Of a stretch of 34,943 nt of DNA, positions 9,472-27,997 are shown piece by piece (position 1 is the first letter of the stretch; every line of letters starts with the position of its first letter). A model generated the notes under the pieces. It ran no database searches, was not told the DNA's origin, and was given only the letters and a program-made list of their open reading frames with translations. A program made the position numbers and the translations under genes. This DNA is from an uncultured Ruminiclostridium sp. GTDB taxonomy: Bacteria; Bacillota; Clostridia; Oscillospirales; Ruminococcaceae. The stretch is taken from NCBI GenBank assembly GCA_949878745.1, contig CATLBH010000029.1, positions 1-34,943 of the forward strand, written 5' to 3'.

Positions 9472-9565
9472 ATACTAATCCCTTTTAAAATGTTGGATTA
9501 GTGTTTCGGGTGCAGTCCTTTTTTAAACTATGGATAAGATCCATAGTTTAAAAAAGGATTGGTAC
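9472..9565 (+). repeat. T element, copy 1 (two-hairpin dispersed repeat)
   Basis: The element begins ATACTAAT and ends ATTGGTAC. Hairpin 1 is ACTAATCC (9474-9481) with GGATTAGT (9495-9502). The linker GTTTCGGGTGCA (9503-9514) follows. Hairpin 2 is a perfect 19-bp stem, 9516-9534 with 9540-9558, around a 5-base loop. The same layout recurs at 22755, 23088 (inverted), 25067 and 27904, with a deleted form at 18701. Confidence 0.85.
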
Positions 9566-9657
9566 AAGTTATTGTTAACAAAGCTGCCCAAAAAATGTGC
9601 CGAAGCAATAAAAACTTTTCTTTTTTGTAAGAAATTGTGAAAATTTTATCCTAACAC

Positions 9658-9686
9658 TTGCATTTTCTCGATAAATATTATATAAT
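9658..9686 (+). promoter_or_regulatory. Sigma-A promoter of the ATP synthase cluster
   Basis: TTGCAT (9658-9663) and a perfect TATAAT (9681-9686) are separated by exactly 17 bases. It is the only strong plus-strand promoter seen before the cluster and lies about 140 bases upstream of the first start codon. Confidence 0.8.
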
Positions 9687-9827
9687 ATTACTGCAACTCT
9701 TTGAAAAAATAAAGAAAGCGGCTTACCCATAATACAGATTAGTCAAAATACGGACAAATAAAACTGAAATTTTTCATAATAATATTTCATAAAGAAACAG
9801 ACCGATAAAGGGAGTACAAAAAGTACA

Positions 9828-10478
9828 ATGGCTACGAAAAAGAAAAAGAAAAACGGAATAAACATAGCTTCGCTTATCATAACTATACTTGCGGTGGCTT
9901 TGGCGATCGGCGCGATAATTTTTCTCTTAAAGACCACCGGCTCCGACGATGAAGCGGAAACCACCCCCACCCGGCCCGCCGTTACCGAGTTTATGGCGAC
10001 TCAGGAGCTGGTGGACGCCACGCAGCAGGCCGCCTATGATCTGCTCCCCAAAAACTATAAGGTATTCCAGTATCTTACCAGGGGAATGACCCACGAGGAC
10101 GAGCCTTACGGAAATCTCCCCGAGGACGGCTTCTACACCTGCGTCAGCGACGAATTCGATAATTTTGATGATTTCAGCGATTATATAAAAGGAATATATA
10201 CCGAAGAAACGGCGGAAAAGCTGCTTTCCGACCCCTTCGGGAACGGCTCCGTATACGGCGTGGACGATACCGGCGCGCTTGGTCTTTCCTCTGAATTTGT
10301 TCCCAATGAGGAAGAGGGTCTTTCTTGGGCGGACGTACACTTCCTCTGCACCCCTCTTTCCGAAACCGAATGCAATGTAAAAGTCACCTTAAAGGACTCT
10401 TCCGACAACGACGTGGACAAAGAAGTTATGCTTGTCCTTGAAAACGGCGAGTGGAAGCTTGCGGAGTTGGTGGGCTGA
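9828..10478 (+). CDS. Membrane-anchored extracytoplasmic protein at the head of the atp cluster
   Basis: A 216-residue protein of unknown function. After a lysine cluster (residues 4-8) there is one hydrophobic segment at about 12-34, which reads as an uncleaved N-terminal anchor with the rest outside the cell. A short Thr/Pro linker near 44-50 leads to an acidic domain of about 160 residues (PEDGFYTCVSDEFDNFDDFSDY and a final LENGEWKLAELVG). The YxxVSDxFxxxxDFxxYIxxxYTxETAxKLL pattern and the closing strand vaguely recall IseA-like cell-wall hydrolase inhibitors or NTF2-like folds. I do not claim either. An AAAGGGA site precedes the ATG. The stop lies six bases before the atpZ-like start, so it is very probably co-transcribed with the ATP synthase genes. 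Confidence 0.7.
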   Translation: MATKKKKKNGINIASLIITILAVALAIGAIIFLLKTTGSDDEAETTPTRPAVTEFMATQELVDATQQAAYDLLPKNYKVFQYLTRGMTHEDEPYGNLPEDGFYTCVSDEFDNFDDFSDYIKGIYTEETAEKLLSDPFGNGSVYGVDDTGALGLSSEFVPNEEEGLSWADVHFLCTPLSETECNVKVTLKDSSDNDVDKEVMLVLENGEWKLAELVG

Positions 10479-10484
10479 TGGCTT

Positions 10485-10793
10485 ATGAACGAAGAAAAGG
10501 AAAAAGGCGAAAAAAGGGATAATCCTTTTTCGGTCTACGCGGTGGCCAGCCAAATAGGGTTTATGGTGATCCTCCCCCTTTTGCTGTTCATCTGGGGCGG
10601 CGCGTGGCTGGTGGAAAAATTTTCCCTTCCCCAATGGCTGATGCCCGTGTTTATCGCCTTGGGAATAATAACCATGATATCCTCGGTGGGGAGCTACCTT
10701 CTTAAGCTTACCAAAAAATACGGAAAACCCAACGTCCCCAAAATGTCGGAGTTTCACCACGACACGAAAGATCACGACTATTACGACGATTGA
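10485..10793 (+). CDS. atpZ: AtpZ-like ATP synthase accessory protein
   Basis: A 102-residue protein with two membrane helices at about 20-42 and 52-74, a charged N-terminus and an acidic, His/Asp-rich tail (FHHDTKDHDYYDD). Helical-hairpin proteins of this size encoded before atpI and atpB belong to the AtpZ/AtpI family, proposed to help rotor assembly or to form a Mg2+/Ca2+ channel with AtpI. The match rests on position, length and the FxxYAxxSQIGFxxxxPLLLxIxxGxWL pattern. It follows the upstream gene by six bases, which suggests translational coupling. The His/Asp-rich tail could bind metal, though this is only inferred. Confidence 0.78.
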   Translation: MNEEKEKGEKRDNPFSVYAVASQIGFMVILPLLLFIWGGAWLVEKFSLPQWLMPVFIALGIITMISSVGSYLLKLTKKYGKPNVPKMSEFHHDTKDHDYYDD

Positions 10794-10811
10794 TAAAAAA
10801 GGATTGATATA

Positions 10812-11225
10812 ATGAAGCGCAAACCGAAAAACCCCGCCTTTGAGGAACTGCGGGATATGCTGCCCACGGCGCTGATAATAAACGGCCTCACCCTGGTGGG
10901 AATAGCGGTATACGGCGTATTCGAGGGCATAACCTGGAGAGCCGTGACGGGGCTTCTGTTCGGCGACCTTCTGGCGGCGGGAAACTTTATCCTCTTGGGT
11001 ATGTCGGCGGCAGGCACCCTCACAAAAGCCAGCGCGAAAAAAGGGCAGTTTTTCGCGAATATGTCCTACGGCGGAAGGTATATAGGTCTTTTCCTGCTAC
11101 TGGCGGGAGGGCTTATGCTGGGAATCATCGAGGCGGTTCCCGCTTTTGTCCCGCTTTTTATACCCAAGGTGCATTATATGTTCAAATACACTTTTAAGGG
11201 CAAAAGCTTTGACGACTTCGGCTAA
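10812..11225 (+). CDS. atpI: ATP synthase subunit I-like protein
   Basis: A 137-residue integral membrane protein with four predicted helices (about 17-38, 44-66, 88-108 and 110-128) and a basic C-terminus. Size, topology and place directly before atpB match subunit I (AtpI), which assists assembly of the c-ring and is not part of the finished enzyme. The sequence is poorly conserved in this family, so context carries the call. AAAAAAGG lies just before the start. A 114-bp spacer with a small ACGGC-TTC-GCCGT hairpin separates it from atpB. Confidence 0.72.
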   Translation: MKRKPKNPAFEELRDMLPTALIINGLTLVGIAVYGVFEGITWRAVTGLLFGDLLAAGNFILLGMSAAGTLTKASAKKGQFFANMSYGGRYIGLFLLLAGGLMLGIIEAVPAFVPLFIPKVHYMFKYTFKGKSFDDFG

Positions 11226-11339
11226 GACCGCTTTTTAGACCATGGTTAAAACAAACACAACAGAATTTTTAAAGGCATTTACGGCTTCGCCGTTTCATAT
11301 TTTATTTCATTTTAATTTCAGAAAGGCTGTGATTTTTTA

Positions 11340-12047
11340 ATGGGAATGAATCTTTTGGCGGAATCCAAATTTACCGTTAACGGCCCCCTCGAGGTGACGA
11401 CCTTCGAGCTGTTCGGTATGACCTTTCACCTGTCGGAATCGGTGGTGGTTGAATGGTTCGTTATGATTCTGCTGGGCGTGCTGTTCTTTGTCCTCGGGCG
11501 CAACCTTAAGGTAAAGCCCACATCAAGGCGCCAGATAGCCGCCGAATACATTGTGGGACTGTTCAGCGGAATGGTTAAGGACACCATGGGCGTAAGCTAT
11601 AAGAAATACACACCCTATATAGGCGCTCTTTTCTGCTTCTCCATATTGTCGAGCCTTATGGGACTTCTTGGGCTCCGTCCCCCTACGGCCGACATATCGG
11701 TGGTAGGCTCCTGGGCGCTGATAACCTTCGTGCTGGTTCAGAGGAACAAGGGAAAGACGGGCGGCGTAAAGGGCTATTTCAAAAGCTTTGTCGATCCTCT
11801 TCCCTTTATGCTCCCCTTTAACATAATCGGCGAAATCGCCAACCCCTTGTCTCAGGCGCTCCGTCATTTCGGCAACATTGTTTCGGGACTTGTAATAGGC
11901 GGCCTTATCTATTTTGCCTTAGGCAATTTAGCCATAGGACTTCCCGCGATACTTTCCCTTTACTTCGACTTGTTCTCGTCGTTCTTACAGGCTTACATAT
12001 TCGTTACTTTGACTATGAGTTATGTGTCGATGGCCGAATGCGACTAG
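11340..12047 (+). CDS. atpB: F1Fo ATP synthase subunit a
   Basis: A 235-residue membrane stator subunit that forms the two ion half-channels against the c-ring. The essential arginine is R175 in NPLSQALRHFGNIVSG, and the conserved glutamine is Q217 in FSSFLQAYIFVTLTMSYV. RPPTADISV at 113-121 is the other family signature. The residue after the essential Arg is His, where most family members have Leu (LRLFGN). Five to six helices are evident. The stop codon overlaps a hairpin (12047-12080), and atpE does not follow until 555 bases later, an unusually long gap for this operon. Confidence 0.95.
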   Translation: MGMNLLAESKFTVNGPLEVTTFELFGMTFHLSESVVVEWFVMILLGVLFFVLGRNLKVKPTSRRQIAAEYIVGLFSGMVKDTMGVSYKKYTPYIGALFCFSILSSLMGLLGLRPPTADISVVGSWALITFVLVQRNKGKTGGVKGYFKSFVDPLPFMLPFNIIGEIANPLSQALRHFGNIVSGLVIGGLIYFALGNLAIGLPAILSLYFDLFSSFLQAYIFVTLTMSYVSMAECD

Positions 12048-12204
12048 TATTTTTCGCGCCCGAAAGGGCGCTCAAAATACGTCCGATACACTTTGCGGAC
12101 GCTGTCCGCAATTTTGCTGCGCCAAAAGCGTGTATCGGACACGTACTGCGCCTGTCTTAGGTTGATTTATACGGAAGCTGTATAATATGCGGCAATTCTT
12201 TTTT

Positions 12205-12440
12205 CGCTTCTTTTTTGGGATCCAAAAAGGAAGCAGGGTTTCCAGAGGGGCAACGCCCCTTTGTTCTTCCTCTGCGGAGTAAGAAACTCTCTTTACACTA
12301 AAAGCGCTCGGGAAGGGGTGAATTGAAAAACAGTCCGCAGAACTGTTTTTCAAGAGGGGAAGCCCTGCAAGAGAGTGCTTCTCTTGGTTCGACAAGCACT
12401 TTTTTCCTTAGGGGTTATCCACGAACGGAAAAAGTTTTTA
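12205..12440 (+). repeat. S element, copy A (inside the atp operon)
   Basis: It opens with the palindrome CTTCTTTTTTGGGATCC-AAAAAGGAAG (12207-12233), then GGGGC-AAC-GCCCC. A further stem, AAAAACAGT/ACTGTTTTT, sits near 12328-12352. The family core GGGGAAGCCCTGCAAGAGAG follows, then an AAGCAC block and GGGGTTATCCACGAACGG near 12411-12428. The core recurs at 22970, 24967 and 28168. Confidence 0.75.
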
Positions 12441-12490
12441 ATGCTCCAACAAAAAGCACACCTGTCAAGCACTCACCCCGTTTTTTGAGT

Positions 12491-12517
12491 TTGCCCCCAA
12501 ACAGTAAATCATATAAT
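12491..12517 (+). promoter_or_regulatory. Possible internal promoter before atpE
   Basis: A perfect TATAAT at 12512-12517 lies about 85 bases before the atpE start, with TTGCCC 15 bases upstream. The short spacing and imperfect -35 make it tentative. It would let the c subunit, needed in many copies, be expressed despite the hairpins upstream. Confidence 0.35.
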
Positions 12518-12554
12518 TTCATCAAACCCAAATGTTTTCCCCAAAAAGGGTTAA

Positions 12555-12860
<306 letters not shown>

Positions 12861-12901
12861 GAGTGGACTAAATTCTGTTGAAAGGACTGATCATATTGTA
12901 T

Positions 12902-13426
12902 ATGGAATTACTTGCCGAAAGTAAAACCTATCTCTCCTTCGTGGATATCAACCCCTCTACCATTGTCTTTACGCTGATCAACACCCTTATAATCTTTCTG
13001 CTGTACCGTTTCTTTTTACATAATAAAGTAATGGCGATTCTGGATCAGAGACAGCAGATGATAAACGCCGACTTCGAAGCCGCCGACGCGGCGAAAAAGG
13101 AAGCGGAGGAAACCAAGGCGGAATATACCGAAAAGCTTCTTAAATCCAAGGAAGAAGCCGAACAGATCGTTGCGGCGGCCACCAAAAGAGCCGCCGACAA
13201 GGAAGCGGAGATTATTGCCGAAGCCAACGCCGACGCCGCCAGAATGAAGCAGCAGGCGCAGGAAAGCATCGAGCAGGAAAAACGCCGCGCCCTCAACGAG
13301 GTAAAGGATCAGATTTCCGAAGTGGTTGTTCTGGCCGCCTCCAAGGTTTGCGAAAAGGAAATATCCGAAAAGGACAATGCCGGACTTATTGAAGGTTTTC
13401 TTGCCGGCGTAGGAAAAGAGGGCTGA
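12902..13426 (+). CDS. atpF: F1Fo ATP synthase subunit b
   Basis: A 174-residue peripheral-stalk subunit. One membrane helix at about 18-38 (PSTIVFTLINTLIIFLLYRF) is followed by a long charged, Ala/Glu/Lys-rich coiled coil of about 120 residues that dimerises and binds delta. I take the ATG at 12902. GAAAGGA at 12880-12886 is 15 bases away, so the in-frame TTG at 12896 (nine bases away) is a real alternative adding two residues. The stop overlaps the start region of atpH by design: only one base separates TGA from the next ATG. Confidence 0.93.
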   Translation: MELLAESKTYLSFVDINPSTIVFTLINTLIIFLLYRFFLHNKVMAILDQRQQMINADFEAADAAKKEAEETKAEYTEKLLKSKEEAEQIVAAATKRAADKEAEIIAEANADAARMKQQAQESIEQEKRRALNEVKDQISEVVVLAASKVCEKEISEKDNAGLIEGFLAGVGKEG

Positions 13427-13427
13427 T

Positions 13428-13973
13428 ATGACGGGAACGGTTGAAAAAAACTATTCTTTGGCTCTCTTTGACGCGATAAACGAAGAGGGAGAAAGTCTCT
13501 CTTCGGCGCGGGACGAGCTGAATTCGGTTAAAACCGTCATCGACGGATCCGACGGCTTTGTCAAGCTGATGAACACCCCCACCGTATCCAACGAAGAAAA
13601 AATATCGGTTATCAAGGACGCTTTCGGCGGAAAGCTGTCGAGATGCGTGTACAACTTTCTCTGTGTAATCACCGAGGGAAGGCGCTGGGATAAATTTGAC
13701 AAAATCCGCTCCGCCTTTTCGGAATTGTGCAACGAGAAATTGGGCATAGCGGAGATTACGGTTACCACCGCCTTTCCTCTTACCCCTCCCCAAAAAGAGC
13801 AGGTTAAGAAGAAAATGTCCGAGATAATAGGCAAAAACATACTAATGTCCGAAAAAATTGACAAATCCATAATGGGCGGCATTGTCGTGGACTACGGCGA
13901 CACCCGTATGGACGGCAGCGTTAAAACAAGACTCGAAGGCTTAAAGGAAAGCTTTTCTCAGCTTATAGGCTAA
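13428..13973 (+). CDS. atpH: F1Fo ATP synthase subunit delta
   Basis: A 181-residue soluble stalk protein linking subunit b to the alpha3-beta3 head. The N-terminal helical domain (about 1-110) holds the usual NYSLALFDAINEEG opening. The C-terminal domain has the family ending MGGIVVDYGDTRMDGSVKTRLEGL at about 148-171, equivalent to the IGGxxxxxxDxxxDxSxxxxL signature. It follows atpF with one base between stop and start. A 65-bp spacer and the embedded lipoprotein gene follow; normally atpA would come next. Confidence 0.94.
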   Translation: MTGTVEKNYSLALFDAINEEGESLSSARDELNSVKTVIDGSDGFVKLMNTPTVSNEEKISVIKDAFGGKLSRCVYNFLCVITEGRRWDKFDKIRSAFSELCNEKLGIAEITVTTAFPLTPPQKEQVKKKMSEIIGKNILMSEKIDKSIMGGIVVDYGDTRMDGSVKTRLEGLKESFSQLIG

Positions 13974-14038
13974 AAGAGTTAAAGGGATAAAAGACAAGGA
14001 GTTAAGGCTTAAAAGATCCGGCCGGAAAGGAAATCAAT

Positions 14039-15706
14039 ATGAAAAAATTTAAATATTTTTTCATATATTTTTTGGCACTGACTTTTATTTTGCCTGTCCT
14101 TGCTTCCTGCCAAAAGGAAGATAAGTCGGAAACTTTTTCCGCCGAAATGCCCGATCCCTTTGATTACTCAAAGCCCTTAGCACACGAAACCTTAGGAAGC
14201 TTCAAAAGCTGTTACAACTTCACCTTTTCATGTCTGGATTCCGCGATTCTTAACCTTGCGGATAAAGACGAACGCGACAGGTGGTTTGACGAAAAATTCA
14301 ACGAACGCCTTTTCGTTCCCTACCCCGACGATATTACGGTGTTAAGCTTCGTGCGGCGATTTGACATTCCCAAGGAAAAGCTTCTTGAGGCTGCGGAAAA
14401 TGCCGATTTTCCCGAAGAGTGCATTAGCCCCGAGGATATCGAGATAATTTATTCGGAGGATACGGAGTTAATAAACAAAACCTTCGCGGACGAATACGTC
14501 TTGATAAACGGCGATAAAATATATTCCGCCGAGTGGGTCTATGCACAAACTCCCGACGATTACCTCGACGAGGGAATCCCCTTCGAAAAAGCGATAAACT
14601 GCCTTGAAAAAATGAAAGAGCTGCCCTTTACCGAGGAAGCTCAAACCGCGCTGGACAGTAAAATTGACTATCTTAAAAAAGCGGGCAATCCGGTCAGGGA
14701 ACCGAAAAACATAAAGTTGTTTACCCTTCCCGAAGAGGACTGCAAGTCCTTTTTCAGCGGCTACGACTATGACGAGAACGGAAAAGAAGCGGAAATCAGC
14801 GCCTACTCTCTGGTGTATAAGGAAAAAATATACTCCCCCCAATGGCTTTTCGAACACTCGATAAGCGATTACATAGGGAAAGGCCTACCACTGGACGAAA
14901 CGGCGGATCACCTTGAAAAAATTGGCGATTTCCCCTTTACCGACGAGGCGAGAACCGAGCTGGAGGAAAAAGCGAAGCTTGTAAGAAAAATATATTCCTT
15001 TTCCTATGACGAAGCTTCCGCCGCCGAGGAAAACGAAAACGGTATCCATCAAGAAATAACGATGCCGAATCCGTTTTCCGAAAAAGAAGGAGCGAGCGGA
15101 GACTCGGCGTATAATTTTTACAGCGATTACGCTTTCAGGTTCGGAAATATAGAGTCTACCATATCAAATCTTGTCGACTATGAAAAAAGCAAGGAATGGA
15201 TAAACAACTGTTTTACCGAAGCGATTGCGAATCCCGAAGCTCCGGAAAAAACTCTTTTGGATTATATCAAATATTTTGATATACCGAAAGAAAAGCTTAA
15301 AGAAGCTGTTTCGAGCGCAAATTTACCCGAAGGCTGGATAATATCCCCATCCGATGTGGATGTAATATATTCCGGCGATGATGACCTTATCAAGCAGACC
15401 TTTGTAAACGAATACGCGCTTTTTTATAACGGTAAAATTTACAGCGCCGAGTGGTTGTATGAACATTCGCCAACTGACTATCTTAACGAAGGACTACCCT
15501 TAAACGAAGTCGCGGCGCGTCTCGAAAAAATGGAAGATTTTTCGCTTACCGAGGAAGCGATAGCTGCCTTGGAAACCAAAGCGAAAATGTTGGAGAAGGA
15601 ATATTCCGAAGCGGAAATAACTGTTTCACCCGCAGAACCTGAAACCGTCTCCATGACCGAAGCTCCGGAAACCGACGAACCCGAATCCACAACCCCCGCG
15701 CCCTGA
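14039..15706 (+). CDS. Repeat-containing lipoprotein embedded in the atp operon
   Basis: A 555-residue predicted lipoprotein of unknown function. A basic N-terminus and hydrophobic stretch lead to the lipobox LASC, with Cys24 as the acylation site, so it should sit on the outer face of the membrane. It is internally duplicated: unit A (about 38-155, MPDPF to NKTFADEYVL) recurs at about 342-461 (MPNPF to KQTFVNEYAL). A second unit, KIYSAEWLYEHSxxDYxxxGLPL followed by LEKM and a helix, occurs three times (160-214, 263-318, 466-522). The tail is rich in Thr, Pro and Glu, wall-spacer-like. It lies between atpH and atpA on the same strand with GGAAAG before the ATG, and no promoter or terminator separates it. 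Codon choice looks like that of its neighbours, so recent transfer is not evident. Confidence 0.8.
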   Translation: MKKFKYFFIYFLALTFILPVLASCQKEDKSETFSAEMPDPFDYSKPLAHETLGSFKSCYNFTFSCLDSAILNLADKDERDRWFDEKFNERLFVPYPDDITVLSFVRRFDIPKEKLLEAAENADFPEECISPEDIEIIYSEDTELINKTFADEYVLINGDKIYSAEWVYAQTPDDYLDEGIPFEKAINCLEKMKELPFTEEAQTALDSKIDYLKKAGNPVREPKNIKLFTLPEEDCKSFFSGYDYDENGKEAEISAYSLVYKEKIYSPQWLFEHSISDYIGKGLPLDETADHLEKIGDFPFTDEARTELEEKAKLVRKIYSFSYDEASAAEENENGIHQEITMPNPFSEKEGASGDSAYNFYSDYAFRFGNIESTISNLVDYEKSKEWINNCFTEAIANPEAPEKTLLDYIKYFDIPKEKLKEAVSSANLPEGWIISPSDVDVIYSGDDDLIKQTFVNEYALFYNGKIYSAEWLYEHSPTDYLNEGLPLNEVAARLEKMEDFSLTEEAIAALETKAKMLEKEYSEAEITVSPAEPETVSMTEAPETDEPESTTPAP

Positions 15707-15799
15707 TTTTATTTTTTCCGCCGAATTACTGCGGCTTATTTAAAAAATTCCCCGCGGAAAGGAGTTTCCGCAAGACCACCGAAAGGAGGAAGGTCACAA

Positions 15800-17814: not shown

Positions 17815-18672
17815 TTGGCATCAGGAAATATGAAGGCGATAAAGCGCCGCATAAAGAGCGTAGGCTCGACCATGCAGATCACCAAGGCAATGGAGCTGGT
17901 TTCGTCCAGTAAGCTGAGAAAAGCCAAGGAAAAAGCCGAAGCCGGCCGCCCTTACTTTGAAAAGCTTTACGAAATGATGACGGAGATAGCCGAATCGAAA
18001 AAGGATTTCAGTTCGCCTTTTATCGAAAGACGGGAAGTAAAAAACCGCCTGTTTATCGTTATCGCGGGCGACAGAGGCCTTGCGGGCGGATATAACGGAA
18101 ATCTGCTTAAAATGGCGCTTTCCGAGGGAGAAAACGGTGAGGATAAACCAAAGATTATCGCTATCGGAAAAAAGACCATTGAGTTTTTTGAGAAACGTGG
18201 CTTTGACATAGTGGGAAAATACCCCCTTCTGGCCGAAACCGCAAAGACAGCCGACTGCTCCGATATTGCCACTATCGCCATTGAGATGTTCAAAAAGGGC
18301 GAGGTCGATCAGGTAAAGATCTTCTACACCACCTTCGTTTCCCCCTTGGTGCAGAATCCCGTTTCCATGGATATACTGCCCATTTACAGAGACGAGGACG
18401 GCGAGGAGGTTCCCGGCGTAATCACATACGACCCCTCTCCCGAAGCGGTTTTCAACCGTATTGTACCTAAATTTACCATGAGCTTGATTTACTGCGCTTT
18501 AAGCGACGCCTATGCTTCGGAGCAATCCGCAAGGCGAAACGCCATGGAAAGCGCTACGGACAACGCCGAAAAAATGACCGAGGAATTAAGCTTAAAATAC
18601 AACCGTGCCAGACAGGAAAAGATCACCAACGAAATTAACGAGATCGTTTCCGGCGCAAATGCACTCCAATAA
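17815..18672 (+). CDS. atpG: F1Fo ATP synthase subunit gamma
   Basis: A 285-residue central-stalk subunit that turns inside the head. The N-terminal helix is MASGNMKAIKRRIKSVGSTM followed by QITKAMELVSSSKLRKAK. The C-terminal signature is LKYNRARQEKITNEINEIVS. The start is a TTG at 17815, five bases after AGAGGTGA; it gives the family's usual MAS beginning, whereas the ATG five codons later has no good ribosome site. A TTG start on a core subunit may lower its yield relative to alpha and beta. The next gene, atpD, follows after 112 bases that hold a deleted T repeat. Confidence 0.96.
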   Translation: MASGNMKAIKRRIKSVGSTMQITKAMELVSSSKLRKAKEKAEAGRPYFEKLYEMMTEIAESKKDFSSPFIERREVKNRLFIVIAGDRGLAGGYNGNLLKMALSEGENGEDKPKIIAIGKKTIEFFEKRGFDIVGKYPLLAETAKTADCSDIATIAIEMFKKGEVDQVKIFYTTFVSPLVQNPVSMDILPIYRDEDGEEVPGVITYDPSPEAVFNRIVPKFTMSLIYCALSDAYASEQSARRNAMESATDNAEKMTEELSLKYNRARQEKITNEINEIVSGANALQ

Positions 18673-18700
18673 TGCTGCTCTCAAATTTTATGGCAGTATA

Positions 18701-18756
18701 ATACTAATCCCTTTTTAAACTTTGTATATTACGTCACTTTAAAAAAGGATTGGTAT
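18701..18756 (+). repeat. T element, copy 2 (deletion derivative) between atpG and atpD
   Basis: Only one hairpin remains. ATACTAATCC (18701-18710) pairs with GGATTGGTAT (18747-18756), with A/T-rich inner arms CTTTTTAAA and TTTAAAAAA. The linker and hairpin 1 closing arm are missing. In full copies, AATCCCTTTTT occurs twice about 35 bases apart, so a deletion between those direct repeats would give exactly this form. Confidence 0.75.
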
Positions 18757-20704: not shown

Positions 20705-20748
20705 AAAGCCGTAATCTTTCTTTTTTGCAAGATTACGGCTTTGTTTTT
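20705..20748 (+). terminator. Terminator of the ATP synthase cluster
   Basis: The perfect 14-bp stem AAAGCCGTAATCTT (20705-20718) with AAGATTACGGCTTT (20729-20742) has a 10-base loop and ends in TTGTTTTT. Confidence 0.92.
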
Positions 20749-21177
20749 ACAAAAGCCTCCGCGAAAAAAACTCACCGTCTTTTTCAAAAGACTCTTTTTA
20801 TTTTCTGAGCACTTTTACCGATATTTTCATTAACATTGTCTTTGTTATACTAAGCTATATTTATATTTAATTTAAAAGTATTTATAGGTGCAGTATAACA
20901 AGTTGTGTATTTACTTGCCTCGGAGTTTTTAACAACACCTTTTTATCTAAAATCATAATAACATTATATTTACCTATATATAATATTTTAATATCAAATA
21001 CGCAATTATTTTATCAATGCCGAAAAAATAACCTGAGGACACGCAAATAAAAATTTTACAGCAAATTCCTCAAAATAAACAACCGCCCCTCTTTTTTCTC
21101 AAACAATCACATTCCCGCCCCTCCGACCGACCACTCCTCCTCAATAAAAAACCCCCTTTCAAAACAATCCATACCCG

Positions 21178-21345
21178 CCCCCATCAACCAAAACCGTCCC
21201 TAACCCCACACCGACTCATCCGCATCCGGCGCAGCCCAAATTTTCTAACGAAAATTTGACGCCGCTCCGCAAGCTCCGCGACTGCTCATTCCGCTCCGCT
21301 CCATTCGCGGCTGCGCCCTACGATCATCCCCCACCCCATAAATCA
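21178..21345 (+). repeat. G element, copy 1 (upstream of the dNTPase gene)
   Basis: Outer arms GGCGCAGCC (21228-21236) and GGCTGCGCC (21309-21317) enclose an inner hairpin, AAATTTTC-TAAC-GAAAATTT (21238-21257), and GCTCCGC-type repeats. A left part containing AAAACCGTCCCTA is also shared with the copy at 31553. The element ends a few bases before the -35 box of the next gene. Confidence 0.75.
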
Positions 21346-21350
21346 CCCCG

Positions 21351-21379
21351 TTGCATTTCCCCCAACTTTATGCTATACT
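21351..21379 (+). promoter_or_regulatory. Promoter of the dNTPase gene
   Basis: TTGCAT (21351-21356) and TATACT (21374-21379) are 17 bases apart, with an extended -10 (TGC before TATACT). The start codon is about 46 bases further. Confidence 0.75.
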
Positions 21380-21424
21380 AATACCAACACCACCCTCAAA
21401 ACAGAAAGAAAGGCAGGTAAAAAA

Positions 21425-22651
21425 ATGCCCACAATCGAATCCCCACTCCGCTACCGCCAACTAAACAAAGAAATCCAACAGCGCATAGAACACGACCGCC
21501 AAAACCACATCTCCAACCCCAATAAAGCAGACGACTTAAAAGCACTTCGCCGAGACCAAACCCGCGACAAGTCAAACCTCCTCCGTCCCGCCTACATAAG
21601 AGACATAGACAAAATCCTTCACCTCCCTCTCTACAACCGCTACAACGATAAAACCCAGGTTTTCTCCTTTATCTCCAACGACGACATCACAAGACGGGGG
21701 CTTCACGTACAATTAGTCTCAAGAATTGCCCGAAACATAGGAAGACTTCTCGATCTTAACCTTGACCTTATCGAAGCCATAGCATTAGGTCACGATATAG
21801 GCCACACCCCCTTCGGCCACGCGGGTGAAAGATATCTCAGCGAGCTTCTTTTTGCCGAAACGGGAAGATATTTTAACCACAACGTCCACAGCGCGAGAGT
21901 GTTGGACGTACTGTACCGGAGAAATATAAGCCTACAGGTGCTGGACGGCGTACTTTGCCATAACGGAGAACTGGAGCTGGGCGAATACCGCCCTTCCCCC
22001 ATAAAGAATTTTGACGATCTGGACAAACGTATAGAGAGCTGCTGCACAACGGGAAGAGAAGCTATCGAAAAGCTTATTCCCTGTACACTTGAAGGCTGCG
22101 TGGTAAGAATAAGCGATATAATTGCTTATGTGGGAAAGGACAGACAGGACGCCGTCACCGCGAAAATAATTGACGAAAACACACCCTTTTCCTCCAACAT
22201 TATCGGAAGCAAAAACGCGGAAATGATAAATAATCTTGTGGTGGATATAGTAAACAACAGTTATGGAAAAGATTGTATCCAAATGAGTAAGGAGGTCTTT
22301 GAGGATCTGAAAACCGCGAAAAGGGAGAATTACGAAAAAATATACCGAAATCCTATGGCCAATACCGCTTACGACGAAGTAATAAAACCGATGTTTAAGG
22401 AAATGTATTACAGATTACTGAAGGAAGCAACGGACAAAAACGAGGATTCGATAATTTATAAGCATCATATAAATTATATCAGGGAAGGAATGAGATATTA
22501 TTCCGATTGCTTTGATTACGGTGAAGAGGAGCCGAATCAGATTGTGGCGGATTTTATGGCGAGTATGACAGATGATTACTTTGTGGAATTGTATAAGGAA
22601 TTGTTTCCCGACAGCGGGTATAGGATAGAGTATCGTTCCTACTTTGGTTAA
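21425..22651 (+). CDS. dgt: HD-domain deoxyguanosinetriphosphate triphosphohydrolase-like dNTPase
   Basis: A 408-residue metal-dependent HD hydrolase that splits dNTPs to deoxynucleoside and triphosphate, so it can limit dNTP pools. The HD metal site is H94 (RRGLHVQLVSRIAR), H123-D124 in ALGHDIGHTPFGHAGE, and D231 in RISDIIAYVGKDRQDA. H127 and H132 are also in place, and the N-terminal RDKSNLLRPAYIRDIDKI is typical of the family. The substrate range within the dGTPase family cannot be told from sequence. AAAGG lies 12 bases before the ATG. The first 60 codons are strikingly C/A-rich and G-poor while the last 60 are G-rich. The gene stands alone, between the atp terminator and a block of repeats. 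Confidence 0.9.
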   Translation: MPTIESPLRYRQLNKEIQQRIEHDRQNHISNPNKADDLKALRRDQTRDKSNLLRPAYIRDIDKILHLPLYNRYNDKTQVFSFISNDDITRRGLHVQLVSRIARNIGRLLDLNLDLIEAIALGHDIGHTPFGHAGERYLSELLFAETGRYFNHNVHSARVLDVLYRRNISLQVLDGVLCHNGELELGEYRPSPIKNFDDLDKRIESCCTTGREAIEKLIPCTLEGCVVRISDIIAYVGKDRQDAVTAKIIDENTPFSSNIIGSKNAEMINNLVVDIVNNSYGKDCIQMSKEVFEDLKTAKRENYEKIYRNPMANTAYDEVIKPMFKEMYYRLLKEATDKNEDSIIYKHHINYIREGMRYYSDCFDYGEEEPNQIVADFMASMTDDYFVELYKELFPDSGYRIEYRSYFG

Positions 22652-22754
22652 AACAAAAGATGATCCTATAAATTCAATTAATTTTTTCGCTTCATTTTAT
22701 TTATACATAAAAACAAATTTACAAAGCGACTATAAAAAATGAAAGTTACAGTTA

Positions 22755-22869
22755 ATACTAATCTTTGGTCAGATTATAGACAAAAAAATGTTGACCAAAG
22801 ATTAGTGTTTCGGGTGTAATCTTTAATCATATTTCCGACTTCGTCTACAATATGATTAAAGATTAGTAT
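22755..22869 (+). repeat. T element, copy 3
   Basis: The ends are ATACTAAT and ATTAGTAT. Hairpin 1 is 15 bp (22757-22771 with 22792-22806). The linker is GTTTCGGGTGTA (22807-22818). Hairpin 2 is 16 bp (22818-22833 with 22849-22864). The stem sequences differ completely from copy 1 beyond the ends, yet both stems pair perfectly. Confidence 0.85.
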
Positions 22870-22956
22870 AAAACATCTTTCAGGAAAGCGTATTAAAGTT
22901 TCCGTCCCGAGGTCGGTGCCTCGCAGCAGTCTCTTACCCTTCTTCAAAAGGTGGGG

Positions 22957-23057
22957 CGTTTTGAAAGAGTGGAAGCCCTGCAAGAGAGAGCTTTCCCTGT
23001 TACGATAAGCACAAGTTATCCTTCGGGGTTATCCCCGAAGGATAAAAATTTTTTTAC
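22957..23057 (+). repeat. S element core, copy B
   Basis: The core has GTTTTGAAAGAG, GGAAGCCCTGCAAGAGAG, a GATAAGCACAAGTTATCC block and CCTTCGGGGTTATCCCCGAAGG. The same order is found at 12360, 24960 and 28160. It sits between two T elements. Confidence 0.75.
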
Positions 23058-23087
23058 ATCCCCAATTAAAACTCATTTAAACGCCTT

Positions 23088-23200
23088 ATACTAATTTCAT
23101 TTTAAAAAGGTTCTAACCTTTTTAAGATGAAATTACACCCAAAGCACTATTTTAAAATTATCCACTAAATTTTGCAATCTTTTTAATTTAAAAATAGTAT
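23088..23200 (-). repeat. T element, copy 4 (inverted)
   Basis: Read on the minus strand, hairpin 1 is 15 bp with one mismatch (23186-23200 region with 23146-23160). The linker is GCTTTGGGTGTA (23134-23145). Hairpin 2 is 19 bp with one G-T pair (23115-23133 with 23094-23112). Both ends keep the TACTA/TAGTA motif. Confidence 0.8.
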
Positions 23201-23290
23201 TACACATGTTTATTTGCTTAACTTCGTGCGAATGGGCAAAAAGCAAATGTTTTAAGATTTCTCTTTTACTTTATTGGGAAAAGAAACCAA

Positions 23291-23306
23291 TGTTCCACGT
23301 GGAACA
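23291..23306. promoter_or_regulatory. parS site, downstream of parB
   Basis: TGTTCCACGTGGAACA is a perfect 16-bp palindrome of the parS type bound by ParB/Spo0J. An identical copy lies at 25852. It is 416 bases beyond the parB stop. Confidence 0.9.
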
Positions 23307-23408
23307 TTAAAAAAATAAAACACCTTATCAGAACGTTTTAAAAATAAAAACCTGTCAGCATAGAAATGGTGCGTGAATTTTCAATAAGATTTGCCGAGGA
23401 TAAGGCAA

Positions 23409-23434
23409 AATTACGCCAATCCTCTGGCGTAATT
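23409..23434. terminator. Hairpin, possible terminator downstream of parB
   Basis: AATTACGCCA (23409-23418) and TGGCGTAATT (23425-23434) form a perfect 10-bp stem with a 6-base loop. It lies about 290 bases after the minus-strand parB stop. No long T run follows, so termination is uncertain. Confidence 0.4.
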
Positions 23435-23721
23435 CAATAAATTTTAACACACGAGATGTTCAGTAATTTGCCCAAAGTCGGCGCAAAGAGGCACCGACAG
23501 CAAATCAAATATAAAAAAGCAATTATTAGTTGGATTTTCCAAAAAAACGTATCGATTTTTATGAAGCAAATTCTCACTTCTTTTGGAGCATTTTTAGCGT
23601 AAAGAAAGTTGCGCCTACGTGAATAAGTAAAGGGCGTTAAACTTTTGGAAACCCTGCTTCCTTTTTGGCTTTCAAAAAGGAAGCGAAAAAATTAACCGTT
23701 TTTACAACCTCCGCAAAAAAC

Positions 23722-24537
23722 TCACTTCAACGGTATTTTAACCGAATACTCAATACACTCCTCCGTCTGCCTTTTCTCCAAATTACAATGTATCCCCGCC
23801 GACTTCATAGCCTCCACTGTCTTATTAAAACTATTTATATAAAGTCCGATAACCCTATAAGGATCAGTCCTGTTAATAATTTTAGGCTTCGGCTTCGTAT
23901 CTTCCTCATACTCCACCAACAGCCCCTCCACATACCTATCGGTTTGCGTGCTGTTCATCTGCCTAAGATAAATCTCCCTCACCGCCTGTTCCCTCTTACT
24001 TTCGGGCAGTCTGATGACAGCCCTTGCCTGCCGCTCGTTCAGCCCGTACTTAAGAACCATTCTTTTGTCATTCTCCGACAACCGCAGCAGCCTTAGCTTA
24101 TTTGCCACGGTAGACTGAGCGATCCCCAGCTTGGAAGCCGCGTCCTCCTGAGTAAGGCCGTAATGATCTATAAGCCTCTTAATCGCCGCCGCCTCCTCAA
24201 GATAATTCAGATCCGCTCTCTGTATATTTTCCAGTATCGCCAGAATCGCGGACTGCTTGTCCTCTCTTTCCAGCACAATACAAGGCACAAACTCCAGATT
24301 AACCAGCTTAGCCGCCCTCAGCCGTCTTTCTCCCGCTATAAGCTGATAACCCGTATCCGTTTTCCTTACCGTAAGCGGCTGAACAATACCGTTCTGCTGA
24401 ATACTCACCGCTAGCTGAGTCAAAGCGTAATCGTCGAAATACTCCCTGGGCTGAGCGGGATTAGGCTCGATCATTGAAACTGGAATATTTACCACATTGT
24501 TTACCACGCGTTCGGCTTGCTTTTGAAAAATAGGCAT
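23722..24537 (-). CDS. parB: ParB/Spo0J/Noc-family DNA-binding CTPase
   Basis: A 271-residue chromosome-partition protein that loads on parS and slides as a CTP-bound clamp. The N-terminal domain has GIVQPLTVR (50-58), the CTP-site motif GERRLRAAK (69-77) and ENIQRADLNYLEEA (103-116). The helix-turn-helix is GLTQEDAASKLGIAQSTVAN (127-146). The C-terminal 60 residues would dimerise. No parA/soj gene is adjacent, and the position next to rsmG and mnmG is where Firmicutes often keep noc. However, the two nearby palindromes are parS rather than the Noc site, which favours true ParB. AAGGGGG precedes the ATG. It is transcribed away from rsmG with 630 bp of repeats between. Confidence 0.87.
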   Translation of the reverse strand: MPIFQKQAERVVNNVVNIPVSMIEPNPAQPREYFDDYALTQLAVSIQQNGIVQPLTVRKTDTGYQLIAGERRLRAAKLVNLEFVPCIVLEREDKQSAILAILENIQRADLNYLEEAAAIKRLIDHYGLTQEDAASKLGIAQSTVANKLRLLRLSENDKRMVLKYGLNERQARAVIRLPESKREQAVREIYLRQMNSTQTDRYVEGLLVEYEEDTKPKPKIINRTDPYRVIGLYINSFNKTVEAMKSAGIHCNLEKRQTEECIEYSVKIPLK

Positions 24538-24585
24538 ATATTTTGCCCCCTTTTTAAATAAAAAAGTCTGTTATCCTTAATACAA

Positions 24586-24613
24586 TTATTACATATATTC
24601 ACCGAGTTTTCAA
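24586..24613 (-). promoter_or_regulatory. Probable parB promoter
   Basis: On the minus strand TTGAAA (24608-24613) and TAATAA (24586-24591) are 16 bases apart, with TG just before the -10. It lies about 50 bases upstream of the parB start. Confidence 0.55.
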
Positions 24614-24753
24614 GCAGAAACTTTCGGGGAAAAATAAGCCTGTTCGACCAAATAATCAGTCCTTCGCGGGATTACAATCCATTTCACGTGCTTAAAAAAT
24701 GAAAAAGAAAAAAATATGGCGAAATAAAATGAAAAGGGGCTTAAAACAATCCA

Positions 24754-25060
24754 TTCTTTCTTTTCATCCTTTTTTAGGATACAAAAAGAAAGTGGGGGGC
24801 CCAAAAAGGCGTCACTTTGGTCGCTCACGCGGGAGCGAAATACCCCACGCAAAGGAGCAAAATTTCGGACAAAGTCCGAAAGCGGTTAGGCCAAAGATTA
24901 GCGCAGAGGGTCTCTTAAGCAGCCCGAAATGGGTGAATTTCAAAATGCCACCGGCGTTTTAAAAGAGGGGAAGCCCTGCAAGAAAAGGCTTCCCCTGTTA
25001 CAATAAGCACAAAATCCCCTTCGGGGTTATCCGCGAACGAACACATTGTTTTACAATCCC
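24754..25060 (+). repeat. S element, copy C (longest)
   Basis: It starts with TTCTTTCTTTTCATCC opposite GGATACAAAAAGAAAG. A TTTGGTCGCTCACGCGGGAGCGAAA hairpin block (also in copy D, stem CGCTC/GAGCG) follows, then TTTCGGAC-AAA-GTCCGAAA near 24863. The core GGGGAAGCC (24967-24975) and GGCTTCCCC flank a short loop, and CCCCTTCGGGGTTATCCGCG closes it. Confidence 0.75.
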
Positions 25061-25066
25061 CATCTA

Positions 25067-25161
25067 ATACTAATCCCTCTTTAAACTGTTGGATTAGTGT
25101 TTCAGGGGCAATCCCTTTTTTAAACTGTGGGTATTACGTCAGTTTAAAAAAGGATTGGTAT
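25067..25161 (+). repeat. T element, copy 5 (abuts rsmG)
   Basis: The ends are ATACTAAT and ATTGGTAT. Hairpin 1 is ACTAATCC/GGATTAGT. The linker is GTTTCAGGGGCA (25099-25110). Hairpin 2 is a 17-bp stem, 25111-25127 with AGTTTAAAAAAGGATT. It ends six bases before the rsmG stop codon. Confidence 0.85.
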
Positions 25162-25167
25162 AAAACT

Positions 25168-25812
25168 CTACCCCCTAAACAACACCAACCTCCTCCCATC
25201 TCCCCCGGGCAGTCTATAAACAATTTCCCTCTCAAACCCCAGCCCAAGCCTATCCCCAATCTTACGCAGCTCTCCGTCCATCTCCTCCTTAGCCCCCCTC
25301 ATAGCCATAAAAACTCCCCCCCTCTTAACCAGCGGAGCGGCATATTTCAAAAGAGTCTCCATATCCGAAACGGCTCGGGCGGTCACCATATCAAACCTTT
25401 TCTTATACTTTTCCGACTTTCCCAGCTCTTCTGCCCGTGCGTGTATAATCTCCTCCGCCCGAATCCCAAGCTCCGGGAGCAAAAGCCCGAGATAATCAGT
25501 CCTCTTCCTTCTGGCGTCCAAAAGGGTAAATCTCAAATCGGGACGAAAAACCATCATAGGAACCGCCGGAAACCCCGCCCCCGTCCCAATATCAAGACAA
25601 GCCGCCTCTTCCCTAACATTATACAGCTTAAGCGGAAGCACCGAATCCAAAAGATGCTTTTCAATAATCCCCGCCCTGTCGGTAATGGCAGTAAGATTCA
25701 CCTTCCGATTATATTCCGAGAGAAAATCAATCATTTTCTCCATCTTCTCAACCTGAATTTCGCTGAGAGAAATGTCCGACAGCCCGAACCTTTCCCTTAT
25801 ATCATTACTCAT
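25168..25812 (-). CDS. rsmG: 16S rRNA (guanine-527-N7) methyltransferase
   Basis: A 214-residue SAM-dependent methyltransferase that modifies G527 of 16S rRNA, in the streptomycin region. The SAM site is CLDIGTGAGFPAVP (72-85). YNRKVNLTAI (34-43) and IEKHLLDSVLPL (50-61) are family blocks. The protein stops at LPGGDGRRLVLFRG, whereas most family members continue about 20 residues with a basic KYPRKxGxPxKxPL tail. The T element lies directly beyond the stop, so the tail may have been lost when it inserted. GAAAGGAA precedes the ATG. It follows mnmG by 150 bp that contain parS, an order typical of Firmicute origin regions. Confidence 0.93.
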   Translation of the reverse strand: MSNDIRERFGLSDISLSEIQVEKMEKMIDFLSEYNRKVNLTAITDRAGIIEKHLLDSVLPLKLYNVREEAACLDIGTGAGFPAVPMMVFRPDLRFTLLDARRKRTDYLGLLLPELGIRAEEIIHARAEELGKSEKYKKRFDMVTARAVSDMETLLKYAAPLVKRGGVFMAMRGAKEEMDGELRKIGDRLGLGFEREIVYRLPGGDGRRLVLFRG

Positions 25813-25851
25813 AGCTTAAATTCCTTTCGGTTTTTACGGGAGCAATTACAA

Positions 25852-25867
25852 TGTTCCACGTGGAACA
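25852..25867. promoter_or_regulatory. parS site between rsmG and mnmG
   Basis: A second exact TGTTCCACGTGGAACA palindrome, in the leader of rsmG. ParB bound here could spread over the rsmG and mnmG promoters. Confidence 0.9.
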
Positions 25868-25962
25868 TACAAATTTTCCCTTTCATAAAAAGCCTTATCC
25901 GTAAAGACAGATTACCGCCCCCAACAAGAAAGCAATCAAAACCCGCCGCAAAAAAAACGTTG

Positions 25963-27837
25963 TCACTCCCCGAGAAGCAGCAGCAAAACCGTAACGTCCG
26001 CCGGATTAACACCGCTTATCCGACTGGCCTGTCCGATATTTAGCGGCCTATATCTGTTAAGCTTTTCCTGAGCCTCAAGCCTTAATCCATGTACCGTCCT
26101 GTAATCGATATCTGCGGGCAGCTTTTTCTCTTCAAGCTTTTTCATCTGCCTCACCTTCTCGTCCTGGGCTTCGATATACCCCTTATACTTAACCCTGATC
26201 TCAACCTTTGAAATAATCGTGTCCCCGAGAGAAGGCGCCTCACCGTCGAAGGCCGCCAAGGTTTTATAATCGACTTGCGGACGCTTCAAAAGCTCCGCGA
26301 ATCTTACTCCGGTAGTAATAGGCGAAGTCCCCAAGCCCGCCAAAGCGACGTTAAGCTCCGAAGAAGGCTTCAAGGTGGTTTTGCTTATTCTCTTAAGCTC
26401 CTTTTCCACGCTTTCGTTCATCTCCAAAAACACCCGATACTTTTTCTCTCCCAATAACCCGAACCTTATGCCGATTTCCGCCAATCTTTCGGGAGCATTG
26501 TCCTGTCTCAGTAAAAGCCTGTATTCGCTACGGCTGGTCATCATTCGATATGGCTCTATACATCCCTTCGTTACCAGATCGTCAATAAGAGTACCTATAT
26601 AAGAAGAGCTTCGGTCAAGCACCAGCATTTCCCTTCCCCCGCAGTAACAGGAAGCGTTTATCCCCGCCACAAGCCCCTGAGCCGCCGCCTCCTCATAGCC
26701 GCTGGTGCCGTTGAACTGACCCGCCCCGAACAGCCCCTTAATCCTCTTGAATTCCAGCGTGGCATACAGCTCCAGCGGATCAACACAGTCATACTCAATG
26801 GCATAAGCGGGACGCATTATCTCCACATTTTCAAGCCCTCTAATGGTGCGGAGAAATTTAATCTGCACGTCCTCGGGAAGACTGGAGGACATACCCTGTA
26901 AATAACACTCATCGGTATCAAGCCCCATAGGCTCAACAAAAAGCTGATGTCTTTCCTTATCCTTAAACCTGACGATTTTGTCCTCTATACTGGGACAGTA
27001 ACGGGGCCCAACCCCCTCAATCCTTCCCGCATACAAAGGCGAACGGTGAAGATTATCCAGAATAATTTTATGGGTCTCCTCATTGGTATAAGTGACGAAG
27101 CACTTCACCTTGTTTTCCAAGGGCAGGTCATTGTCAAAGCAAAAAGGCACTATAGGCTCGTCGCCCTCCTGAACCTCCATAAGGTCAAAATTAACGCTTC
27201 TTTTATGAACCCGCGCGGGGGTACCCGTCTTAAAACGGCGAAGGGAGATCCCCTTTTCCTCCAAATCCTTAGTCAGCTCCAATGCGGGGAGCACATTGTC
27301 GGGTCCGCTCCGATAATTAAGCTCCCCAATATGTATTCTACCCCCAAGATAAGTACCCGTGGCAATAACGGCGGCTTTCACGTTGTAAACGGTACCCAAT
27401 CTGGATTTAACCCCCGTTACCCGTCCCTCCTCGGTAACAATCCCCACGATCTCCGCCTGTTTTATTTCCAGATTTTTCTGACACTCAAGAACCTGCTTCA
27501 TATAAGTATGATATTTCACCCGATCGCTCTGAACCCGCAGGGCGTGAACGGCCGGACCCTTCCCTCGGTTAAGCATACGGGACTGAATAAAAGTAGCGTC
27601 CGCCGCCCTGCCCATTTCGCCCCCCAGCGCGTCGATCTCACAAACAAGCTGTCCCTTTGCGGAACCGCCGATACAGGGATTACAGGGCATATTCGCGATG
27701 GCGTCCAGGGATAAAGTAAACAAAACCGTCCTGTTCCCCGTCCTGGCGGAAGCGAGAGCCGCCTCAACCCCCGCGTGTCCCGCGCCTATTACGGCTACGT
27801 CAAAATCGCTGTTGTATATTTCAATGATATTGTTCAT
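25963..27837 (-). CDS. mnmG: tRNA uridine-5-carboxymethylaminomethyl modification enzyme MnmG
   Basis: A 624-residue FAD enzyme that, with MnmE, adds the carboxymethylaminomethyl group to U34 of certain tRNAs. The FAD-binding fold starts [14 protein letters not shown] (15-28). [16 protein letters not shown] carries the conserved cysteines. [13 protein letters not shown] and [21 protein letters not shown] are further signatures. The C-terminal helical MnmE-binding region is complete and ends [18 protein letters not shown]. Its partner gene mnmE is not in the window. AAGGAT lies nine bases before the ATG. It is read with rsmG downstream on the same strand. Confidence 0.97.
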
Positions 27838-27903
27838 TTTCGTTTTATCCTTATTGTCTAAAATTAAACATTTGTTTTTACGATAACCCGTATATAGTGT
27901 TTT

Positions 27904-27997
27904 ATACTAATCCCTTTTAAAACTGTTGGATTAGTGCTTTGGGAGCAATCCCTTTTTAAACTGTGTGTATTTCGTCAGTTTAAAAAGGGATTGGTAT
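27904..27997 (+). repeat. T element, copy 6
   Basis: The ends are ATACTAAT and ATTGGTAT. Hairpin 1 is ACTAATCC/GGATTAGT. The linker is GCTTTGGGAGCA (27936-27947). Hairpin 2 is AATCCCTTTTTAAACTG with CAGTTTAAAAAGGGATT, a perfect stem. Copies 1 and 5 have one more A/T pair and one fewer G/C pair at the same place. Confidence 0.85.

What the first reader, a model, noticed from the sequence alone, without database searches (positions are those of the whole stretch)
9472..27997. T element: a dispersed two-hairpin repeat whose stems change sequence but keep pairing
Five full copies (9472-9565, 22755-22869, 23088-23200 inverted, 25067-25161, 27904-27997) share TACTAAT/ATTRGTA ends and a 12-base linker, G[CT]TT[CT][GA]GG[GTA]G[CT]A. 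Between them lie two stems. In copies 3 and 4 the stem sequences differ completely from copies 1, 5 and 6, yet each still forms 15-19 paired positions. That is strong covariation for structure, seen directly. It implies selection on a folded RNA or a folded single-stranded DNA (as for transposable elements of the REP/BIME or IS200/IS605 type). I do not recognise the family. The conserved unpaired linker suggests a binding site for a protein or another RNA.
Basis: partly seen in the sequence, partly recalled or inferred. Interest (0 to 1): 0.82.

Follow-up and report, generated by a model that had tools for sequence, protein, structure and literature searches.

The report
Double-hairpin jumping elements of IS630 type
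These repeats are a family of roughly 100-base mobile DNA elements scattered through the genomes of some members of one genus of uncultured bacteria, probably carried by an IS630-type transposase; their two hairpins really do change sequence while staying paired, but that looks like a property of mobile DNA ends rather than of a working RNA.

Summary
All five copies are where stated (true ends one base inside each edge), plus an unreported solo hairpin at 18702-18755. The linker occurs 122 times in this 2.67 Mb genome (reversed pattern 0). In 20 hand-picked class representatives 98.6% of 588 pair cells pair and 130 cells are changed on both sides (38.9 in shuffles).

What it is: a non-autonomous transposable element (MITE). 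Copies sit between identical 3-bp flanks TNA (91 of 116; shuffled mean 47, maximum 65), clean empty sites carry one TNA, 82 of 92 tested junctions lie outside long ORFs, and the distribution is patchy. IS630-type insertion sequences with the same kind of ends and the same TNA duplication exist in related genomes, and seven contig ends of the window's own genome carry IS ends sharing the variable block of one element class. IS200/IS605 and REP types are not supported, and nothing favours a functional RNA: one-sided changes giving G-U (45 cells) and A-C (38) are about equal. RUP of pneumococcus is the closest known element. New: two palindromes round an invariant linker, TNA instead of TA, interchangeable stem families. 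Unexplained: why inner arms follow outer ones, and what the linker does. The commonest class (A) has the weakest match to any IS in hand.

The parts
9473..9564 (+). T element copy 1, class A stems (92 bp); linker 9503-9514; flanks TAA (9470-9472) and CAA (9565-9567), so its duplication is imperfect
22756..22868 (+). T element copy 2, class B stems (113 bp); linker 22807-22818; 3-bp duplication TAA at 22753-22755 and 22869-22871
23089..23199 (-). T element copy 3, class C stems (111 bp); linker 23134-23145; duplication TAA on the element strand (23200-23202 and 23086-23088)
25068..25160 (+). T element copy 4, class A stems (93 bp); linker 25099-25110; duplication TAA at 25065-25067 and 25161-25163
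27905..27996 (+). T element copy 5, class A stems (92 bp); linker 27936-27947; duplication TTA at 27902-27904 and 27997-27999
18702..18755 (+). solo hairpin, class A second hairpin with both outer ends and no linker; TAA on each side; lies between two ATP synthase genes (PF00231 ORF ending 18672; ATP-synt_ab ORF from 18785)
   Evidence: weak match at 18670-18755

Best explanation
The T element is a MITE: a non-autonomous DNA transposon of about 90-126 bp moved in trans by an IS630-type (IS630-Tc1-mariner group, DDE) transposase. Its outer arms (1 and 4) are the terminal inverted repeats: TACTA, a lineage-specific block of about 5-6 bases, then an A-rich stretch; insertion duplicates a 3-bp TNA target. 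Each end is backed by an inverted copy of itself (arms 2 and 3), so each half is a palindrome, and the halves are joined by an invariant linker (GTGYTTYGGGTGYAAT). Shown: repeat family, ends, TNA duplication, empty sites, ends shared with IS630-type elements, covariation. Inferred: mobilisation by that transposase; the block acting as its recognition specificity, so that classes track different transposases; the inner arms being kept complementary at DNA level, by quasipalindrome template switching and/or by a need for hairpin ends during transposition.
For: Genome-wide: 122 linker hits, control 0. TSD: 91 of 116 delimitable copies (24 of 140 dropped; loci of G000, G001, G016) have identical TNA flanks, shuffled mean 47.4 and maximum 65 in 2000, none with 4 bp or more; 122 of 163 in the wider set, which still held four chance hits. 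Empty sites: hits for 25 of 119 joined flanks; the clean ones I rely on, each with one TNA, are L001, L012, L039, L048, L110 and L113. Placement: 10 of 92 junctions inside an ORF of 120 aa or more, 183 of 267 random points. Patchy: exact linker in 3 of 60 genomes, own included; model R1 in 5 of 36 same-genus genomes and 0 of 7 from other genera, and in a 295-genome draw of the order only in G000 and G034 (strict filters). Cognate IS: with the duplication not imposed, four elements of 1104-1117 bp (L264, L267, L268, L269; ends at least 14 of 18 identical) all have identical TNA flanks (TTA, TAA, TTA, TTA) (one search had imposed it). Transposase pieces of L263 and L264 match NF033545 IS630 (as fragments under its cut-off; the G001 second frame over it) and, for L264, DDE_3. 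Own genome: two contig-end left ends with a transposase start; seven contig-end right ends with block TAACC that read into an IS630-type C-terminus (three of seven translated), the block of T class E1 (28 of 32 identical to the two-copy version, 26 of 32 to the five-copy one). The G001 IS end matches T class D right end of that genome at 25 of 32. DNA rather than RNA: one-sided cells G-U 45, A-C 38.
Against: No complete cognate IS is assembled in the window's own genome. G016, G008 and G034 hold T elements but no detectable IS630 transposase, though G016 is only 76% complete. Classes A and B, the commonest here, have no IS with their exact block in hand; class A ends match IS ends only weakly (p 0.054 and 0.024, uncorrected) and the class G right end not at all (p 0.188) (hand-picked ends). 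The classical duplication of this superfamily is TA, not TNA (passages of PMC7386202; RUP in PMC2229807), and a further IS630-type element in G017 (L296) has 16 of 18 matching ends without a TNA duplication (flanks TTA and GAA; its better ends are flanked by TA). The IS ends do not form such hairpins (best mirror 7-10 of 14, against 12-14 in 64 of 68 long T elements) and lack the linker, so T is not a simple internal deletion.
Confidence: 0.85

Rival explanations
1. A folded RNA (regulatory element or small RNA) kept by selection for host function, with the linker as its unpaired binding site.
For: Strong covariation; invariant linker across all stem families aligned; two hairpins predicted in all five window copies.
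Against: No G-U over A-C bias, 45 against 38 cells, 21 against 21 distinct states; 4 one-sided against 130 two-sided changed cells between classes, unlike RNA evolution through G-U (recalled expectation); equal strands, 62 and 60; patchy within a genus; many one-sided changes left unrepaired in single copies; no Rfam match.
Confidence: 0.06
2. A single-stranded-DNA element of IS200/IS605 or REP/REPIN type moved by a Y1 transposase.
For: Paired hairpins with a fixed spacer resemble REPIN doublets (recalled); one Y1 transposase in this genome.
Against: 3-bp duplications and terminal inverted repeats; Y1 found in 2 of 5 element-bearing genomes, one weak and with stops; ends shared with IS630-type elements.
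Confidence: 0.03
3. Same MITE, but the keeping of pairing is purely mutational: long near-perfect palindromes are repeatedly made symmetrical by template switching, with no selection on structure. (A rival about the cause of covariation, not about what the element is, so its odds overlap with the best explanation.)
For: In class A H2, perfectly compensated two-sided states are about as frequent among states seen in one copy (7 of 29) as among states seen in several (7 of 36); no strand bias.
Against: Small counts; copies seen once here may have unsampled relatives; the linker would still need an explanation.
Confidence: 0.4

Closest known systems
RUP, repeat unit of pneumococcus (IS630-Spn1 MITE; PMC2229807 and PMC3049150, passages seen)
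   Same: About 107 bp, 108-110 copies, intergenic, AT-rich, TIRs resembling those of a resident IS630-type element, target duplication
   Different: RUP inserts at TA and in its predicted fold the two TIRs pair with each other; the T element duplicates TNA, has two side-by-side palindromes round an invariant linker, and many stem families
REP/REPIN and BIME (recalled; PMC2817692 and PMC3116915 seen only in search listings)
   Same: Hairpins in high copy number, extragenic; REPINs pair two of them with a spacer
   Different: REPs go with Y1 (RAYT) transposases; here terminal repeats, TNA duplications and IS630-type partners
IS630-Tc1-mariner group members with duplications longer than TA (Fot and Fot-like pogo, TAA or TAAA; PMC7386202, passages seen)
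   Same: Same transposase superfamily, 3-bp duplication in Fot
   Different: Those are eukaryotic pogo elements; no closer link was tested
Correia/NEMIS, ERIC, CIR and other bacterial MITE-like repeats (PMC2229807, Table 1 passage)
   Same: About 100-200 bp, stable stem-loops, TA motifs at termini
   Different: No sequence relation tested; none in the passages seen has exchangeable stems round a fixed linker

Membership tests
MITE (non-autonomous DNA transposon) | short, multi-copy, dispersed | tested here: met
   mostly 92-113 bp, up to 126; 122 exact linker hits in one genome
MITE (non-autonomous DNA transposon) | terminal inverted repeats | tested here: met
   TACTA...TAGTA or TGGTA ends, block matched between the two ends in most classes, not in D or G
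MITE (non-autonomous DNA transposon) | target site duplication and empty sites | tested here: met
   91 of 116 TNA; clean empty sites with one TNA
MITE (non-autonomous DNA transposon) | mobilised in trans | not testable with these tools
   needs a transposition assay
IS630-derived MITE (RUP-like) | TIRs match an IS630-type element, in the same genome | tested here: met
   met for class E1 (own-genome IS ends, 28 of 32) and class D (G001, 25 of 32); 16 of 18 hand-picked T ends beat shuffled IS ends at p 0.025 or less uncorrected, class A left end (0.054) and class G right end (0.188) do not; not shown in the same genome for A, B, C, F, G
IS630-derived MITE (RUP-like) | TA target duplication | tested here: not met
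   duplication is 3-bp TNA, as in four IS630-type elements with the same kind of ends; so it is filed with that IS group, not as a RUP
IS200/IS605-derived element | no target duplication, no terminal inverted repeats, Y1 transposase (features recalled) | tested here: not met
   duplication and TIR present; Y1 in 2 of 5 bearing genomes
REP/REPIN | associated Y1 (RAYT) transposase (feature recalled) | tested here: not met
   PF01797 not found in G001, G016 and G034; G001 and G016 are 86% and 76% complete
described RNA family (Rfam) | covariance-model match at gathering score | tested here: not met
   the only window match is a group II intron at 42-126

The most novel reading that the evidence does not exclude
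The paired stems are read as structure: an IS630-type transposase, or a host factor bound to the invariant linker, needs two extruded DNA hairpins, and the five-to-six-base block in the stem is a swappable address that lets one chassis be re-targeted to different resident transposases, with palindrome correction copying each new address into the inner arms. This would be a modular parasite of transposases.
Probability: 0.2. Interest if true: 0.75.

Novelty: new variant of a known kind. Interest (0 to 1): 0.5.

Why it matters
Strong covariation is usually taken as a sign of a selected RNA. Here is a large natural set of covarying hairpins in which the other signs (hardly any G-U intermediates, no strand bias, compensated changes in single copies, TNA duplications) point to mobile DNA palindromes instead. 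That is a useful caution for covariation scans and a good system for asking how compensated palindrome changes arise. It also points to an IS630-type group with a 3-bp TNA duplication and diversifying end blocks, with MITEs that seem to follow it.

Tried and rejected
IS200/IS605 and REP: not supported, on TSD, TIR and Y1 distribution. RNA family: Rfam gave only the group II intron. T as simple internal deletion of the IS: not supported, since 12 IS ends show no comparable hairpin and 20 IS loci hold no linker within 3 mismatches except two neighbouring T elements. Solo hairpins (9 of 30 loci with an exact class-B-type left end; 18 double, 3 interrupted or other): at first read as proof that one palindrome moves alone; but the two hairpins share direct repeats at their arms, so deletion inside a double element could give the same product with the same flanks, and I leave this open. 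The G000 C16 IS630-like gene (L261, L295): no TACTA ends found. L296 of G017, also IS630 family, has other ends and no TNA. In L263, L265, L266, L270 to L273 no convincing pair of ends came out (L272 and L273 gave 11 of 18 without equal flanks); single ends from L263, L265, L266, L271, L273 and L301 were used by eye. Elements with hairpins were seen there in records JAAVIE, JAAVIF, JAAVIG, CANDLP, CANEHP and JAMPBF; whether the last three belong to the same genus I could not tell. Literature searches on MITE with Oscillospiraceae, and on the MAG names, gave no paper. Several of the 25 empty-site hits are nested or low-quality (for example e5, e9, e17, e36, e53) and are not counted as proof. 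The counts of 88 and 12 equal the candidates scored, thus lower bounds. On the second check I added, which showed that one search had imposed the duplication, and lowered the main confidence from 0.87 to 0.85.
Full report
Observation. The five copies lie at 9473-9564, 22756-22868, 23089-23199 (minus), 25068-25160 and 27905-27996, one base inside each stated edge, and each is predicted to fold as two hairpins. Their form is TACTAAT-stem-ATTAGTG, linker, YAAT-stem-ATTRGTA (TACTATT in class C). A sixth piece, 18702-18755, is a solo hairpin with the same ends. The linker pattern occurs 62 plus 60 times in the 2,665,846-base genome (108 contigs) and its reversed control 0 times. GC of the five copies is 21-35%, of the window 46.9%.

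Covariation. From the loci then in hand I delimited 163 elements, 156 after removing four chance hits, sequences with N and duplicates; both steps used pairing to set the ends. Stem classes: A (CCCTTTT), B (CTTTGGTC), C, D, E1 to E3, F and, in G034, G, all with the same linker apart from single-base variants. In an alignment of 20 hand-picked representatives 98.6% of 588 cells pair, 20 of 32 pairs show a change on both sides, 130 cells are two-sided (shuffled mean 38.9; none of 500 reached it), and sliding partners by one to three columns drops pairing to 29-46%; the count of further pair types (39) is not above shuffles (37.2).

But it does not behave like a selected RNA. Within classes A (75 copies) and B (36 copies) one-sided changes give G-U in 45 cells and A-C in 38, and as distinct states 21 and 21 (cells count copies, not events): no preference for the pair that only RNA tolerates. 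Between classes nearly every change is Watson-Crick to Watson-Crick, with 4 one-sided changed cells against 130 two-sided. In class A H2, 131 changed cells are one-sided and 98 of them lose a standard pair; of 42 two-sided cells 36 stay Watson-Crick. Copies thus seem to decay after insertion, while compensated changes are seen both in single copies (7 of 29 states) and in shared ones (7 of 36).

Mobility. Of 140 linker hits in the first set (G000, G001, G016), 116 could be delimited; 91 of these have identical 3-bp flanks, TAA 61, TTA 20, TGA 9, TCA 1. Shuffling right flanks gives 47.4 on average and at most 65 in 2000 trials, and no copy has 4 or more identical bases. Because left and right N agree, TNA is a duplication and not part of the element. 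Joined flanks of 119 copies found a counterpart for 25, of which I rely on six: L001, L012, L039, L048 (single TGA, 95.5% over 111 bases), L110 and L113 (filled in G016, unfilled counterpart in G001, 91.6% over 167 bases); some counterparts are other copies of a repeat, not orthologous sites. Elements avoid genes: 10 of 92 junctions inside ORFs of 120 aa or more, 183 of 267 random points in the same flanks. The exact linker is in 3 of 60 genomes counting the window's own. The covariance model finds 88 (a cap) in each of G000, G001 and G016, 37 in G008 and 4 in G034, none in the other 31 same-genus genomes of the list nor in the seven genomes of other genera on it; in a 295-genome draw of the order only in G000 and G034. 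Both searches used Infernal's stricter filters. G001 and G016 correspond to NCBI records titled Oscillospiraceae bacterium, Mgla_MAG_19-bin_22 and Mgla_MAG_6-bin_38. In G016, 34 listed copies share one score and 13 of these begin within 4 bases of a contig start, which suggests recent amplification.

Partner. A search for ends of the form TACTAAT, six free bases, TNANANTATAGACAAA gave 209 places in the own genome within 3 mismatches (control 2) and led to a contig-end IS: TAA, then TACTAACAATCATTTAAAATATAGACAAA and the start of a transposase, with a second copy at the end of C50 flanked by TTA. The protein matches winged-helix families; pieces of its relatives in G001 and G017 match NF033545 IS630 and, for G017, DDE_3, with the gene in two frames. 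Homologues at E 1e-8 or better are in 3 of 60 genomes, G000, G001 and G017; with the G001 protein as query, in 8 of 394 of the order. Four complete elements of 1104-1117 bp (in G017, G276, G376, G329) have matching ends and, without my asking for it, identical TNA flanks. A further IS630-family element of G017 (L296) has other ends and no TNA. In the own genome seven contig ends carry the right end of two related IS, TACTAATAACCA[AT]TTAAAAACA; the three I translated read into an IS630-type C-terminus ending ITGRDWILSCF. T class E1, also in this genome (L274), has the same block. Of 18 hand-picked T ends, E1 right matches an own-genome IS end at 28 of 32 and D right matches the IS of its own genome G001 at 25 of 32; 16 of 18 beat shuffles at p 0.025 or less uncorrected, class A left (0.054) and class G right (0.188) do not. 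In G001 a class D left end, cut by the contig end, follows directly on the transposase second frame, so a T element has probably inserted into that gene.

Mechanism. Arms 1 and 4 are the transposase ends; arms 2 and 3 mirror them. The block is matched between the two ends in L264, L269 and largely L267, partly in L268, and between the ends of T classes A, E1 to E3 and in part B, not D or G; this fits lineage-specific recognition (inferred). Why arms 2 and 3 follow is open: template switching across a near-perfect palindrome would do it without selection; a need for hairpin ends would do it by selection. The IS ends are not mirrored in this way (7-10 of 14, against 12-14 in 64 of 68 long T elements). 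The invariant linker, absent from the IS loci, is unexplained and is the most interesting part.

Known relatives. RUP of Streptococcus pneumoniae is the nearest: 107 bp, 108-110 copies, IS630-Spn1-like ends, insertion at TA, TIRs paired with each other (PMC2229807 and PMC3049150, passages). Longer duplications exist in eukaryotic Fot pogo elements of the same superfamily (PMC7386202, passages). My searches for IS630 MITE hairpins, bacterial double hairpins and Oscillospiraceae MITEs listed no description of this element; they cover only the held open-access library, and searches listed only the top 15 papers.

Noticed in passing
window 42-126: Group II intron match (RF00029, 59.5 bits) at the window start.
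   Followed up: no
window 12342-12463, 22955-23076, 24953-25074, 28152-28273: Another dispersed repeat of 122 bp (63-80% identity to the reference copy); three of the four copies lie close to T elements. Likely a separate repeat family.
   Followed up: no
L218, L238, L253, L027, L001: A second repeat with ends like GGAACCRCTGATT...AATCAGYGGTTCC lies inside some T elements and has T elements inside it.
   Followed up: partly
L067 4-160, L147 367-523, L125 6038-6193, L153 993-1149: 156-157 bp elements with TACTAA ends and equal 3-bp flanks (equality imposed by the scan) that fold as long structures; another non-autonomous family that may use the same transposase group.
   Followed up: partly
L263 1-42: A class D T element end, cut by the contig end, follows directly on the IS630-type transposase frame in G001.
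   Followed up: partly
window 2339-9436: 2365-aa ORF with GH94 domains, perhaps a cyclic beta-glucan synthase (recalled).
   Followed up: no
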